A DNA stretch of 64,000 bases, taken from contig MTMF02000009.1 of assembly GCA_002011125.2 (NCBI GenBank), positions 547,095 to 611,094 of the forward strand. The letters are read 5' to 3'. Positions 5,569 to 30,853 of the stretch are shown piece after piece. Origin of the DNA: Candidatus Hydrothermarchaeum profundi. GTDB taxonomy: Archaea > Hydrothermarchaeota > Hydrothermarchaeia > Hydrothermarchaeales > Hydrothermarchaeaceae. The position numbers and the translations under genes were made by a program. How positions within the stretch are numbered: the stretch's first letter is position 1; every line of letters starts with the position of its first letter. The notes beneath the pieces are model-generated. The model ran no database searches, was not told the origin of the DNA, and saw only the letters and a list, made by a program, of their open reading frames with translations.

Positions 5569-5635
5569 ATCAAGTCCTTTCTAAACTTATTTTTAGTAAC
5601 ATTTTTATTCATCAGGATATAAAAAAATTTCAAAA

Positions 5636-6745
5636 ATGGATGAGATAGTCGGGGCAGGCTTGAGTTTCGGCTTTAGGCTGTTTGCTGAACTCTATAAGAG
5701 GGAGCCGGGGAGAAATATCTTTGTTTCTCCTCTTAGTGTTTTGTTTGCTCTCTCCATAGCCTATAATGGCTCAAGGGGGGAGACGAAACATGCGATGGCA
5801 AAGGCGTTATGTGTCCATACTATTGGGTTGGATAAACTTAACCAGGCAAATAGCTCACTGCTAGCCGCCTTAGAGGAGCTTGATCCAAAGGTCCATCTGA
5901 TAATTGCTAATGCTCTCTGGACTAGTCATGATATCAGGTTTAAAGAGGATTTTCTGACTGATGTCAAGTTCTATAGGGCGGAAATAGTGAACCTAGATTT
6001 TCATAGCCCCGATGTTGCGAGTCTCATAAATGAGTGGATCAGAAAGAAAACCCGTGGAAAGATACCTCTGATTGTTGACGAGTTGCCGCTGAATGTAGTT
6101 CTGTTAATTCTGAATGCGGTCTATTTCAAAGGAACTTGGAAGCATGCGTTTGAGAAGTCAGACACCAGGGAAGAGGCCTTCATCCTGCCAGACGGTACTA
6201 AGAAAAGACATCCAATAATGTTTCAAAATGGACTCTATAAGTACTATAGAGATAAAGACTTTCAAGCGGTCAGCCTTCCCTATGGCTACGGAAGGATTAG
6301 TATGTACGTGTTCCTGCCTGATAAAGATCTCGAGGAATTTCACAGATTTTTAAACCCAGAAAACTGGAATCGCTGGATGCATCAGTTCCGCAAGATGGAG
6401 GGTACTATAGGCATACCAAGGTTCAAAATGGAATACGGTGCAGACTTGGAGAATGTCCTTACTGCTATGGGTATGGGAATAGCCTTTGATAAAATGAGGG
6501 CGGATTTTGGGGATATGGTAGAGGATGCGAAGGTCTGGATCAACAAAGTCATACACAAAACTTATTTGAAAGTTGATGAAAAAGGCTCTGAAGCCGCCGC
6601 TGTAACTGAGGTGATCCTAGAAAAGGAGGAGCCACCTGAGGAGACCTTCACTATGATTGTAAACCGTCCTTTCTTCTTTGCTATCAGGGACAACGATACA
6701 GGGGCGGTGCTGTTTATGGGTTCCGTCATTGACCCGGAGGAGTGA
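5636..6745 (+). CDS. Serpin (serine protease inhibitor)
   Basis: A 369-aa full-length serpin without signal peptide. Visible signatures are NIFVSPLSVLFALSIAYNGS near the N-terminus, VVLLILNAVYFKGTW in the middle, the proximal hinge DEKGSEAAAVTEV (about residues 318-330) and the C-terminal signature VNRPFFFAIRDNDTGAVLFMG. The small Ala/Ser/Thr residues of the hinge are those needed for loop insertion, so an inhibitory serpin is predicted. The reactive loop is short and acidic (ILEKEEPPEE), giving no clear P1 residue. Serpins are sporadic in archaea, and the position in an accessory region suggests acquisition by transfer. TATA-like sequence lies upstream (about 5617-5624). Confidence 0.9.
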   Translation: MDEIVGAGLSFGFRLFAELYKREPGRNIFVSPLSVLFALSIAYNGSRGETKHAMAKALCVHTIGLDKLNQANSSLLAALEELDPKVHLIIANALWTSHDIRFKEDFLTDVKFYRAEIVNLDFHSPDVASLINEWIRKKTRGKIPLIVDELPLNVVLLILNAVYFKGTWKHAFEKSDTREEAFILPDGTKKRHPIMFQNGLYKYYRDKDFQAVSLPYGYGRISMYVFLPDKDLEEFHRFLNPENWNRWMHQFRKMEGTIGIPRFKMEYGADLENVLTAMGMGIAFDKMRADFGDMVEDAKVWINKVIHKTYLKVDEKGSEAAAVTEVILEKEEPPEETFTMIVNRPFFFAIRDNDTGAVLFMGSVIDPEE

Positions 6746-21008: not shown

Positions 21009-23531
21009 TTGCAAAGTAAAGGTTTGTCCACAGGACTAAAAGAGATGGATAGACTACTAGGGGGCCTAAAACCAGGAGATAATATTGTTTGGCTGGTTCC
21101 TTCTATGGATGAGTATAAGCTTTTCTTGGAACCTTTTATTTCTCATGCTAAAGAATGCAAATTTACTCTAATTTACGTATCTATAGATTCCTCTCTTACT
21201 GATATTATCGGAAGAGACGTAGAAACTTTTCATATATCAGAATACAATCAAATTTCAAGCCTGATAAAAGACATAAAGACTTTAATAGAAGAAAAAGGAA
21301 GGGGTACTCACTATGTATTTGATCCTTTAACTCTTTTTAAAAATCGATGGGGCGAGGATGCATTAGTTGAATTCTTTCTATCAGTATGTCCGTATCTTTT
21401 CGAAATGGAGACCACTGCTTACTTCAGCATGTATAAGGGTGCTCAAAAAAATGAAACAATTGCTAAGATAAAAGAAACCACTCAGATACTTGTTGATGTG
21501 AGTAGGGTGGGTGGGGAGGTGTATATTCAGGTTCAGAAGGCGTGGGATAGGTATGCGGATGAGATGTTTAAGCCTCATAAGTTTAGGATGGGGGCTTTAA
21601 AGGTCCTTGAGGAGATTGATGTAAGTAATTATGTTTTGAAGTTGGAGGAGAAGGTGAGGGAGCTTAATATTATTAAGAATAAGTTGAAGGAGTCTGAGGA
21701 GAAGTATCGTGATTTGTATGATAATGCTCCGGACATGTATCATTCGCTGGATGAGAATGGTGTTATTATTGAGTGTAATGAGACTGAGGCGAGGATGCTG
21801 GGCTATTCGAAGGATGAGATAATAGGTAGGCCTCTTACAGACTTTTTTACCGATGAGTCCAAAAAACTCTTTCATAAGGATTTTCCTAAATTGAAAAAAG
21901 AAGGATCGCTTCTTAATCTTGAAAGGGAGTTTGTAAGGAAGGATGGAACTACTTTTCCAGTTAGCTTGAATGTCTACGCAGAGTTTGATGAAAATGGTAG
22001 ATTTATTAAAACGAGGTCAATAGCTAGGGATATAACTGTGCTTAAGGAAGCTGAGAAGAAGTTAAAAAAGTTAGCTCATGATCTCGGTGAAAGGGTTAAA
22101 GAACTTAATTGTCTTTACGCTATTTCAAAACTTGTAGAAAGAGAGGGCTCTACATTGGAAGATATCCTTCAAGATACGGTTAATCTTATCCCACCTGCTT
22201 GGCAATATCCTGAGATCACATGTGCAAGGATCACTTTCGGGGATAGTGTATATAAAACTACCAATTTTAGAGAAACCCGGTGGAAGCAAGCAGCTGAAAT
22301 TTTTTCTGATGGAAAGAGAGTTGGAAAAATAGAGGTCTGTTATCTTGAAGAAAGACCGGAGATAGATGAGGGTCCTTTCTTAAAAGAAGAGAGAAATCTA
22401 ATTAACGCTATTGCAGAGCGGTTGGGAGAAATAATATTCCATAAAACAGCTGAAAAAGAGCTTAGGAGACTAAAAGAGTTTAACGAAGGTATTGTTAAGC
22501 GGATGGAGGAGGGCATAATTGTAGAAGATAGGGAAGGTTTTATTACCTTTACTAATCCAAGGATGCTGAAAATGTTAGGGGGGAGTAGAAGTAATATAGT
22601 GGGTAGACATTGGAGCGAGATATTCTCTCCCGAGTCTATAAAGAAGGTAGAGGAAGAGAACTTAAAGCTTATGGAAGGGATGATATCCCGTTACGAGGCC
22701 GTCTTGGATTTTAATGGTAAGAAAGTCGATGTCATGGTTAGTGCTACTCCTATTTCCGAGGATGGTAGATATTCTGGCAATATAAAAGTATTTGTAGATA
22801 TAACTGAGAGGAAAAAAGTTGAAGAAAGGCTTAGATTGAAGGCTTTAAAATACAATATTGAAAAGGGTTCAAGTTACTTAATTACAGAGAAAGCATTAAA
22901 TAAAGGCTTAGATGTTTTTCTTGATCTTTTAAATGCAGGTTATAAAGGCTTAATAATAAGTAGGACTGAGCCTGGAGAAATGGTTGAAAAAGCAGAGGGG
23001 AAGGCTGATGTGATATGGCTTAGTAAGAAAATAAAAGGTGAAAATATTCTTCCTCCATTGCTTAGTGTATTAGCAAAGTTCGTTGAGGATTTTGTTTCGT
23101 CTAATAGGGTTTTGTTGTTAGATAGGCTGGAGTACTTAATTGTGCAAAATGGATTTAATGAGGTTATGAAGTTCTTGCAGGAGCTCAATGAGGTAGTTTA
23201 TGTTGCTAAATCAATTCTTATTGTAGTTGTTGATCCCTCTACTTTATCGGCCCAAGAGCTGGGATTATTGGAAAAGGAAATGAAAAAAGTTGAAGCAAAA
23301 TACCAGGTTGAATTAGATAAAGATCTTTTTGAGATTCTTATGTTCGTAAAAAGCGAGAACGAGTCTGGGAGGTTTCCTGCCCACAAGGATGTGGCACATA
23401 GTTTTGGTATCACACGACCTACAGCTATTAAACGAATAAAGGAATTAAAAAACAGAGGCTATATTGTGGATAGAAGAAGAGGTAAATTCAAGATTATTGA
23501 GTTAACTGAGCGAGGAAAGGCTATATTGTAA
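21009..23531 (+). CDS. PAS/GAF/DUF835 sensor-regulator with C-terminal winged helix
   Basis: An 840-aa cytoplasmic protein. Domains in order: a KaiC/RecA-like part (about 1-215; STGLKEMDRLLGGLKPGD fits the family start, but the Walker A lysine-loop is missing), coiled coil, PAS (about 232-350; MYHSLDENGVIIECNETE), GAF-like (about 365-480), second PAS (about 490-605), DUF835 (about 620-750; GSSYLITEKALNKGLDVF) and a winged HTH (about 765-840; VAHSFGITRPTAIKRIKELK). There is no histidine-kinase domain, so it should act as a one-component signal-responsive DNA-binding regulator. Bases about 21490-21820 use strikingly G/T-rich codons compared with the rest, suggesting recombination with a paralogue. 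Confidence 0.8.
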   Translation: MQSKGLSTGLKEMDRLLGGLKPGDNIVWLVPSMDEYKLFLEPFISHAKECKFTLIYVSIDSSLTDIIGRDVETFHISEYNQISSLIKDIKTLIEEKGRGTHYVFDPLTLFKNRWGEDALVEFFLSVCPYLFEMETTAYFSMYKGAQKNETIAKIKETTQILVDVSRVGGEVYIQVQKAWDRYADEMFKPHKFRMGALKVLEEIDVSNYVLKLEEKVRELNIIKNKLKESEEKYRDLYDNAPDMYHSLDENGVIIECNETEARMLGYSKDEIIGRPLTDFFTDESKKLFHKDFPKLKKEGSLLNLEREFVRKDGTTFPVSLNVYAEFDENGRFIKTRSIARDITVLKEAEKKLKKLAHDLGERVKELNCLYAISKLVEREGSTLEDILQDTVNLIPPAWQYPEITCARITFGDSVYKTTNFRETRWKQAAEIFSDGKRVGKIEVCYLEERPEIDEGPFLKEERNLINAIAERLGEIIFHKTAEKELRRLKEFNEGIVKRMEEGIIVEDREGFITFTNPRMLKMLGGSRSNIVGRHWSEIFSPESIKKVEEENLKLMEGMISRYEAVLDFNGKKVDVMVSATPISEDGRYSGNIKVFVDITERKKVEERLRLKALKYNIEKGSSYLITEKALNKGLDVFLDLLNAGYKGLIISRTEPGEMVEKAEGKADVIWLSKKIKGENILPPLLSVLAKFVEDFVSSNRVLLLDRLEYLIVQNGFNEVMKFLQELNEVVYVAKSILIVVVDPSTLSAQELGLLEKEMKKVEAKYQVELDKDLFEILMFVKSENESGRFPAHKDVAHSFGITRPTAIKRIKELKNRGYIVDRRRGKFKIIELTERGKAIL

Positions 23532-23583
23532 ATTTTTACATATTATTTACATTAATTTCAATATTAAGTAAAATACAAGAAAA

Positions 23584-23675
23584 GAAAGAGGTTTATTTTG
23601 AGGTTAAAGACCTCCTACAATGAGCCTCTTTCAACTAGGTGCCGGGAGGTTTCACTCTCGGCGGCTTTCTTTTCA
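23584..23675 (+). ncRNA. Candidate structured RNA or 3' UTR element
   Basis: Two consecutive hairpins. The first has outer arms GAAAGAGG (23584-23591) and CCTCTTTC (23625-23632), with an inner stem GAGGT/ACCTC (23600-23604 and 23610-23614). The second has GCCGGGAG (23641-23648) pairing with CTCTCGGC (23655-23662) around a six-base loop. A T-rich run follows (TTTCTTTTCATTTTTT), as expected of an archaeal terminator. It starts about 50 bases after the sensor-regulator stop. It may be only a terminator structure; the nested first hairpin makes an independent small RNA possible. Confidence 0.45.
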
Positions 23676-23807
23676 TTTTTTGGAGAAAACTAGTATTTAA
23701 AATTATGCCCTCAGCGCTCATAGGGTTCATCATATATTCAGATCGCCCATCATTCATCATTGGGCACTCAAAATTAATAAACTTACCATTATAAAAAATA
23801 CTTCACA

Positions 23808-29435: not shown

Positions 29436-29538
29436 AAATTTTAGTGGCAATTAATCTTATAAATGCTTTCCTAGTGATCTTCGTAAGATTTTTATACTAA
29501 ATCATTCTACACATCGGTCTTCTTTTGGGTGTTTCTCT

Positions 29539-29847
29539 ATGAACATAGAACACTTTGACTCAATCGACTCCCATGAGTATTTGGTATGGGATGAAAATTA
29601 TTCTAGAATTATAGCTTCAGCCAGAATTAAAAAGATCAATGAGGGATTTGAGTTGAAGATTATAAATGTTGAAAGATGGTATAGGGGCGAAGGAGTAGGT
29701 TCAATGTTATTAAATAAAATAGTGGCTGACTTCTCCGACACTACTTTAATCGCGTGGGTATTTAGCTCTAGAGTAGAATGGTACCTGAAAAATGGATTTA
29801 AAGTAAAAGAAAGAGCAGGAAGGCTGGTTAAAGTAGAGATAGAATAG
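29539..29847 (+). CDS. GNAT-family acetyltransferase-like protein
   Basis: A 102-aa short GNAT fold. The acetyl-CoA loop is seen as WYRGEGVGSMLLNKIV, preceded by a beta strand (ELKIINVERW) and followed by LIAWVFSSRVEWYLKNGFKV, the usual Y/FxxxGF end. The substrate is unknown. It is shorter than most GNATs, lacking part of the N-terminal helices. Transcribed alone, divergent from dapF. Confidence 0.7.
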   Translation: MNIEHFDSIDSHEYLVWDENYSRIIASARIKKINEGFELKIINVERWYRGEGVGSMLLNKIVADFSDTTLIAWVFSSRVEWYLKNGFKVKERAGRLVKVEIE

Positions 29848-29889
29848 ATGAATTTGGGTCTAGGAGGGGAAGAACATCGCTTGGTTTTA

Positions 29890-30041
29890 TTTGCATACGC
29901 TTATTAGGCGAATGCAAACATTTTCCACACTTATTTCTTCCCGGCGAATCTCCCTGAAATGCGTCATAAGTTTTCACAAACTTTGACACACTTCCAAGAA
30001 TTCCGTCATTCCAAATCGAATATCTTTCGATATACGATTTG
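29890..30041. ncRNA. Intergenic cluster of three hairpins, candidate structured RNA
   Basis: Three inverted repeats in a 152-base stretch free of genes. The first is TTTGCAT/ATGCAAA (29890-29918) with an inner CGC/GCG stem after an A-A mismatch. The second is AAGTTT-TCAC-AAACTT (29968-29983). The third is a 30-base near-perfect palindrome at 30012-30041: CAAATCG/CGATTTG arms, an A-A mismatch, then ATATC/GATAT around a TTTC loop. The first and third share the same design. They could be parts of a small RNA, the GNAT gene terminator, or protein-binding sites. Strand is unknown. Confidence 0.45.
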
Positions 30042-30083
30042 AAATCACCTAGATTCCCCTTATTCTTAGAGGGTACCTAATGG

Positions 30084-30091
30084 TATAAATA
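30084..30091 (+). promoter_or_regulatory. TATA box, leaderless promoter
   Basis: TATAAATA lies 22-29 bases before the ATG at 30113, the spacing expected if transcription starts at or next to the start codon. Confidence 0.65.
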
Positions 30092-30112
30092 ATTTTCCGT
30101 AAAAGTAAAATT

Positions 30113-30853
30113 ATGAGACTCGGGAGCATTGAGGTAATAGAGCCTTACCCCGCTATATACATAAAAGAGTTGGAAGCTATTGTGATCTGTGATCTTCATC
30201 TTGGATATGAAGGAATAATGGCGGAGCAAGGGATCTTTATGCCTAAGGTTCAGTTTGAAAGAGAAATGGAAATTCTTTCTAAAATCGTTGATTATAAGTC
30301 TGCGTCCAATTTTATTATTGTAGGGGATGTGAAGCACGAATTTTCTGAAACAACATACCATGAATTCAGGGAGGTCAAGGACCTTTTTGAATATTTGAAA
30401 AACAATTTTGAGAGGATCGTCCTAGTAAAAGGGAATCATGATAATTATATTATTTATACTACGAGGAGGTATGGGGTAGAACTCTATGACGAGTTTCTTT
30501 TTAAAGATTTTCTATTTTTGCATGGTGATAAGCCCTTGAAAGAAACTAAAGGCAGGTATATAATAATGGGACATGAGCATCCAGCAATCGCTCTTTATGA
30601 TGAAATAGGGGCAAAGGAAAAACTTAAATGCTTTTTGTACGGGGAAGTGGAGGCAAGGAAATTTTTGGTAATGCCAGCTTTTTCTTATTTAGCCTTAGGC
30701 TCTGAGGTTAATACTATACCCCGAGAGGAGCTTCTTTCCCCAATACTCAAAGAATTGGAGATTGATGACTTTAGAGTAATAGCTATTAGTGAGGAAGCAG
30801 GAATAATGGATTTCGGCAGGTTAGGGGATATTAGGCCAGAAAAATTATTCTAA
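30113..30853 (+). CDS. ICC-like metallophosphoesterase
   Basis: A 246-aa calcineurin-type phosphoesterase. The metal-binding motifs appear in order: ICDLHLGYEG (DxH), NFIIVGDVKHEF (GD), VLVKGNHDNY (GNHD), FLHGDKP and MGHEHPAI. It resembles the archaeal COG1407 group, whose substrate is not established. The 3' end overlaps the converging protease gene by nine bases. Confidence 0.85.
   Translation: MRLGSIEVIEPYPAIYIKELEAIVICDLHLGYEGIMAEQGIFMPKVQFEREMEILSKIVDYKSASNFIIVGDVKHEFSETTYHEFREVKDLFEYLKNNFERIVLVKGNHDNYIIYTTRRYGVELYDEFLFKDFLFLHGDKPLKETKGRYIIMGHEHPAIALYDEIGAKEKLKCFLYGEVEARKFLVMPAFSYLALGSEVNTIPREELLSPILKELEIDDFRVIAISEEAGIMDFGRLGDIRPEKLF

What the first reader, a model, noticed from the sequence alone, without database searches (positions are those of the whole stretch)
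29890..30041. Matched palindromes in a gene-free stretch
A 29-base and a 30-base inverted repeat share the same plan (seven-base arms, A-A mismatch, inner stem) and flank a third hairpin. The 30-base one is perfect except for the mismatch. Such symmetry can be a small RNA, a dimer-binding site, or a mobile-element end.
Basis: seen in the sequence. Interest (0 to 1): 0.55.

Follow-up and report, generated by a model that had tools for sequence, protein, structure and literature searches.

The report
Orphan folded RNA candidate in archaeon
The two palindromes are parts of one larger, exceptionally well-folding 200-base stretch that looks like a gene for a small structured RNA in an uncultured archaeon, but no relative was found and nothing yet shows that it is transcribed or useful.

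Summary
The palindromes are real: 29890-29918 and 30012-30041, each with 7-base arms, an A-A mismatch and an inner stem. With the hairpin between them and an outer stem (30058-30046 with 29866-29856) they form one closed four-way junction of about 200 nt. The minus strand folds at -90.5 kcal/mol (z -8.7, 0 of 200 shuffles as good), and it is the most extreme of 2552 windows. The minus strand is favoured (9 G-U pairs against 4; 17-21 kcal/mol better). A TATA box (30084-30091) suits a leaderless start of the next gene; mirrored, it puts a minus-strand start near 30062, about 4 bases from the foot of the structure. Best reading: a lineage-specific structured non-coding RNA gene, divergent from a metallophosphoesterase gene and tail-to-tail with an acetyltransferase gene. 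It is single copy, matches no Rfam family, and has no relative in the 22 other genomes of its phylum nor in 8, 300 and 28 further genomes (sets overlap). Covariation therefore cannot be tested. Its 40% G+C, against about 60% for three known RNAs of this genome, counts against a conserved RNA.

The parts
29856..30058 (-). Whole structured element (candidate RNA, four-way junction)
   Evidence: MFE structure, base-pair probabilities, z-score, rank among windows
30046..30058 (-). 5' arm of closing stem P1
   Evidence: 10 pairs with 29856-29866, mean pair probability 0.84
29856..29866 (-). 3' arm of closing stem P1
30008..30045 (-).
   Evidence: 16 pairs, mean probability 0.98
29945..30005 (-).
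   Evidence: mean probability 0.90
29867..29942 (-).
   Evidence: mean probabilities 0.98, 0.95, 0.96
30084..30091 (.). TATA box (TATAAATA on +, TATTTATA on -), presumed to serve the leaderless gene at 30113 and perhaps an RNA start near 30062
   Evidence: spacing by inference; precedent for bidirectional archaeal TATA boxes in PMC6640164 (passages)
29539..29847 (+). GNAT acetyltransferase gene, tail-to-tail with the element
   Evidence: PF13508, E 1.4e-07
30113..30853 (+). Calcineurin-like metallophosphoesterase gene, divergent from the element
   Evidence: (PF00149, E 7.2e-08)
29828..30076 (-). 82-codon open frame, first ATG/GTG/TTG is GTG at codon 30, no relatives found; coding status doubtful

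Best explanation
The stretch is a gene for a structured non-coding RNA of about 200 nt on the minus strand, found so far only in this genome. Transcription starts near 30062 from the TATA box at 30084-30091, which also serves the leaderless metallophosphoesterase gene on the other strand. The RNA folds into a closed four-way junction with three long hairpins and ends near 29850, just short of the stop codon of the convergent acetyltransferase gene. It most likely acts as a stable RNA by its shape, as a protein-bound scaffold; because it lies tail-to-tail with the acetyltransferase gene, it could also pair with a read-through mRNA of that gene. Shown: the fold potential, the strand bias and the placement. 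Inferred: transcription, the ends, stability and any function.
For: Minus-strand fold -90.5 kcal/mol against a shuffle mean of -51.6, z -8.7, 0 of 200. Rank 1 of 2552 windows, residual -5.6 sd against -3.6 for the next window outside the element. All helices have mean pair probability 0.84-0.98 and the overall plan persists in the prediction at 60 C. Strand bias: the minus strand folds 17 to 21 kcal/mol better, with 9 G-U pairs of 77 against 4 of 68. The structure is not a by-product of the open frame: with the same peptide and the same codons permuted, 0 of 300 fold as well. The centre of the TATA box is about 25 bases from the ATG at 30113, and its mirror image points to about 30062, while the first paired base is 30058. 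In Pyrococcus furiosus one TATA box can give two divergent starts about 50 bp apart (PMC6640164, passages seen).
Against: No relative by DNA or by a one-sequence covariance model in the other 22 genomes of the phylum, nor by the model in 8 genomes reached through loci, 300 of another phylum (stricter filters) or 28 of a third; sets overlap: G028 is, G024 and G025 are. So no covariation can be shown. G+C is 0.398, like the window (0.40), while part of the 16S rRNA, one tRNA and the SRP RNA of this genome are at 0.595-0.603. No terminator-like site (a bacterial-type scan). The TATA box is already accounted for by the metallophosphoesterase gene. The P. furiosus authors assume that such divergent transcripts are non-functional. 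The plus strand also folds well (z -6.5). Strong folds are not unique: another gap of the window scores z -8.1, and a few stretches upstream of distant metallophosphoesterase relatives reach -5.6 and -5.2 by mononucleotide shuffle (L033, L009).
Confidence: 0.45

Rival explanations
1. A DNA-level inverted-repeat element: a single remnant of a mobile element (such as a miniature element with hairpin ends) or a cruciform-forming site, with no RNA function.
For: Both strands fold. G+C is the window average. The two flanking genes are not neighbours elsewhere: 0 of 41 metallophosphoesterase loci (4 of them second copies of the same stretch, 1 a paralogue in this genome) hold the acetyltransferase within the DNA held, so the gap lies at a lineage-specific junction. 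IS200/IS605-type ends also carry mid-stem mismatches (recalled, not tested).
Against: Single copy in the genome by DNA and by covariance model; no further copy of either palindrome in the window with up to 3 mismatches nor exact in viral contigs. The two palindromes differ in sequence. No target duplication seen by eye. The strand bias in G-U pairs is not expected of DNA.
Confidence: 0.22
2. A structured 3' end of the acetyltransferase mRNA (plus strand), serving as terminator or as protection of the mRNA.
For: It begins right after the stop codon at 29847, and the plus strand folds with z -6.5.
Against: The minus strand folds much better. No T-run follows a hairpin by the scan. Downstream of the acetyltransferase genes of 7 relatives the coding strand shows no comparable fold (z from -2.9 to 0.45, mononucleotide shuffles, up to 247 nt).
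Confidence: 0.13
3. A non-functional divergent transcript: the strong fold is a chance or decaying relic and the RNA is a by-product of a symmetric TATA box.
For: The P. furiosus authors assume such transcripts to be widespread in archaea and non-functional (PMC6640164, passages); no conservation found.
Against: A z of -8.7 over 200 nt in a closed junction is not expected of neutral sequence.
Confidence: 0.12
4. A small protein gene on the minus strand (82 codons, with a CxxC motif).
For: The frame is open throughout. Its codon score (-0.018) lies above the 95th percentile of 75 spurious frames (-0.037).
Against: The score also lies below the 5th percentile of 178 real gene pieces (0.002). The first ATG/GTG/TTG is at codon 30. 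No match in Pfam, NCBIfam, PHROGs, PDB, phages, plasmids or viral contigs, and among 22 other genomes of the phylum only one at E 0.07 with two stops inside. A frame open for at least 76 codons arises in 213 of 5000 mononucleotide shuffles of the gap.
Confidence: 0.05
5. Two operator sites for a dimeric regulator of the metallophosphoesterase gene.
For: The palindromes lie upstream of the TATA box.
Against: The arms differ in sequence (CAAATCG against TTTGCAT), the distance is large, and neither recurs elsewhere in the window.
Confidence: 0.03

Closest known systems
Archaeal orphan intergenic ncRNAs (e.g. those of Pyrococcus abyssi, PMC3124441; start of abstract seen in the search listing only)
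   Same: Intergenic small RNA genes of archaea
   Different: No match to any Rfam family here; average rather than raised G+C; no transcript shown
Divergent antisense transcripts from bidirectional TATA boxes in Pyrococcus furiosus (PMC6640164, passages seen)
   Same: One TATA box between two starts about 50 bp apart (here ATG 30113 and the presumed 30062)
   Different: Those are assumed to be non-functional; this one would start at the foot of a strong fold. Transcription is untested here
Archaeal H/ACA and C/D guide RNAs
   Same: Small RNA genes in archaeal gaps; hairpins with internal loops
   Different: No Rfam match up to E 5 in 29500-30200; no C/D box pair or k-turn recognised by eye. 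A C/D-like match 6 kb away shows that the search can find such RNAs in this genome
IS200/IS605-derived miniature elements
   Same: Imperfect palindromes with a mid-stem mismatch (recalled)
   Different: Single copy, palindromes unlike in sequence; closing stem and middle hairpin form one junction

Membership tests
Structured non-coding RNA gene | Fold more stable than shuffles of the same composition | tested here: met
Structured non-coding RNA gene | Compensatory base changes in relatives | not testable with these tools
   No relative found
Structured non-coding RNA gene | Transcript | not testable with these tools
   No RNA data
Structured non-coding RNA gene | Promoter at the right distance | tested here: inconclusive
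   TATA box fits, but is accounted for by the divergent gene
Structured non-coding RNA gene | G+C like the other stable RNAs of the genome (usual, not strictly defining) | tested here: not met
   0.398 against 0.595-0.603 for three RNAs
Any Rfam family | Covariance-model match | tested here: not met
   No match up to E 5 in 29500-30200; none at gathering in the window
Mobile or repeated element (MITE, REP) | More than one copy | tested here: not met
Mobile or repeated element (MITE, REP) | Target-site duplication or an empty site in a relative | tested here: inconclusive
   No duplication seen by eye; none of 41 loci has the same gene pair
Protein-coding gene | Start codon, codon usage, homologues | tested here: not met
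   First start at codon 30; codon score ambiguous; no homologue

The most novel reading that the evidence does not exclude
A new class of archaeal structured RNA, a four-way junction with three long mismatched hairpins, made from the reverse face of a leaderless gene's TATA box, acting as an RNP scaffold or as a tail-to-tail antisense partner of the acetyltransferase mRNA.
Probability: 0.2. Interest if true: 0.55.

Novelty: new member of a known kind. Interest (0 to 1): 0.33.

Why it matters
If transcribed, it is an orphan structured RNA from an uncultured archaeal lineage, and a case in which a promoter usually taken for noise (the reverse side of a symmetric TATA box) would feed a real RNA gene. 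That would bear on how new RNA genes arise in archaea. If not, it is a single inverted-repeat curiosity.

Tried and rejected
Known RNA: Rfam with a lax threshold on the stretch gave nothing; SRP RNA is elsewhere in the genome, so this is not a missed SRP RNA. RNase P RNA was not searched for across the genome; the window-wide Rfam scan holds no match at gathering. Small protein: rejected as the main reading. Conservation by position: 41 metallophosphoesterase loci (4 duplicates, 1 paralogue in this genome) hold no acetyltransferase relative; of 40 with enough upstream DNA, the 265 bases upstream fold with mononucleotide-shuffle z no lower than -3.9 except L033 (-5.6), L009 (-5.2, plus) and L042 (-4.3); these were not followed up, but the model found nothing in the genomes of L033 and L042 (G014, G005) or L009 (G026). 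Downstream of 7 acetyltransferase loci the lowest values are -3.3 and -3.2 on the reverse strand (L054, L057), where open frames lie. DNA similarity in phages and plasmids: none. Kinship to the other strongly folding gap at 23532-23781: a forced pairwise alignment shows nothing that I find convincing, and the model matches only the element and its own reverse strand in the window. Literature: the listings (12, 12 and 8 rows shown of 56, 35 and 100) and (3 of 3) gave no description of such an element; one search was for the organism only. In one search the flanks printed for L027 and L028 were those on the wrong side of the gene, and L026 was skipped; one search replaced that reading with all loci turned the right way.

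Full report
Observation. They are the only two sequences of that plan in the window; ten shuffles of the window gave four in total. Their arm sequences differ, so they share geometry, not sequence.

What is there. The gap between the acetyltransferase gene (ends 29847) and the metallophosphoesterase gene (starts 30113) is 265 bases. Folded as RNA, the minus strand of 29848-30090 gives -90.5 kcal/mol (shuffle mean -51.6, sd 4.5, z -8.7, 0 of 200 as good); the plus strand gives -73.7 (z -6.5). Among 2552 windows of 211 bases over the 64 kb, both strands, it is the most extreme after correction for G+C (-5.6 sd; the next outside the element is at -3.6). In a separate test of 66 stretches from 14 gaps of at least 150 bases, with 30 shuffles each, it scored -8.1; one other gap (23532-23781, plus strand) also scored -8.1, and nothing outside these two passed -2.7. 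The structure is one closed unit: an outer stem P1 (30058-30046 with 29866-29856), P2 (holding the 30-base palindrome), P3 (26 pairs) and P4 (holding the 29-base palindrome at its tip), with mean pair probabilities 0.84-0.98; the overall plan persists in the prediction at 60 C.

Which strand. The minus-strand structure has 9 G-U pairs in 77, the plus-strand structure 4 in 68. G-U pairs become A-C mismatches on the other strand, so the minus strand is the likelier RNA. The open frame on the minus strand does not explain the fold: 300 permutations of synonymous codons average -55.6 and none reaches -87.7.

Promoter. TATAAATA lies at 30084-30091. Its centre is about 25 bases before the ATG of the metallophosphoesterase gene, which suits a leaderless mRNA (inference). 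Mirrored, it would start a minus-strand transcript at about 30062, and the first paired base of the element is 30058. In P. furiosus one TATA box was shown to give divergent starts 49 bp apart, and the authors assume such transcripts to be non-functional (PMC6640164; passages seen). The box is accounted for by the protein gene anyway, so this is a fit, not a proof.

Relatives. Single copy in its genome by DNA and by a covariance model built from the one sequence (the only other match is part of the element's own reverse strand). No relative in the 22 other genomes held of its class and phylum, in 8 genomes reached through loci, in 300 genomes of another phylum with stricter filters, or in 28 of a third; these sets overlap in at least three genomes. 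No DNA match in phages or plasmids, nor of the exact palindromes in viral contigs. A one-sequence model finds only near relatives, so these blanks say 'not closely conserved', no more. The phylum holds Candidatus Pyrohabitans (Hydrothermarchaeota): contig C2 of G007 has the same length as record MTMD02000002.1; this is an inference. Only one other genome of its family is held, and it is 62% complete.

Position. None of 41 metallophosphoesterase loci (4 of them duplicates, 1 a paralogue in this genome) holds a relative of the acetyltransferase in the DNA held. In three relatives where both proteins were found with a close metallophosphoesterase copy (G006, G007, G011) they lie on different contigs. 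The gap is thus at a lineage-specific junction, which suits a young RNA gene as well as an inserted element. Upstream of those loci most stretches fold like shuffles; three reach -5.6 (L033), -5.2 (L009) and -4.3 (L042) by mononucleotide shuffle, so strong folds do occur elsewhere. These were not followed up.

Against a conserved RNA. Part of the 16S rRNA, one tRNA and the SRP RNA of this genome have 59.5-60.3% G+C; the element has 39.8%, like the window.

Protein. The 82-codon frame has its first ATG/GTG/TTG at codon 30 and no match in any library or collection tried, and in the phylum only one at E 0.07 with stops inside. Its codon score is ambiguous, just under the 5th percentile of 178 real gene pieces and just over the 95th of 75 spurious frames.

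Conclusion. A candidate structured RNA gene specific to this lineage is the best reading (0.45). A lone DNA inverted-repeat element (0.22), an mRNA tail (0.13) and a non-functional transcript (0.12) remain open. It is a new member of a known kind, orphan archaeal structured RNAs, and of moderate to low interest until a transcript or covariation is shown.

Noticed in passing
window 23709-23764, minus strand: Matches to archaeal C/D box guide RNA families below Rfam's gathering scores (sR3 40.2 bits of 41, E 6e-9; sR41 42.5 of 54, E 1e-8; snoPyro_CD 34.7 of 45, E 9.5e-6): probably a real C/D sRNA gene.
   Followed up: partly
window 23532-23781, plus strand: A second gap with very strong folding (z -8.1; z -4.6 over 23451-23760): two long hairpins after a PAS-type sensor gene (named by eye), the second followed by a T-rich run, perhaps a terminator region.
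   Followed up: partly
window 5601-5920, plus strand: Strong fold (z -3.1) over the start of a gene at 5636-6745 whose product looks like a serpin-type protease inhibitor (recognised by eye, no family search).
   Followed up: no
L049 (G000:C8): The 16S rRNA match stops at model position 742 of 1478 at the 3' edge of the locus; the gene appears to be cut by the end of a contig.
   Followed up: no
L033, L009 and L042, 265 bases upstream of the metallophosphoesterase match: Strong folds by mononucleotide shuffle (z -5.6 minus, -5.2 plus, -4.3 minus), not examined for structure or coding.
   Followed up: no
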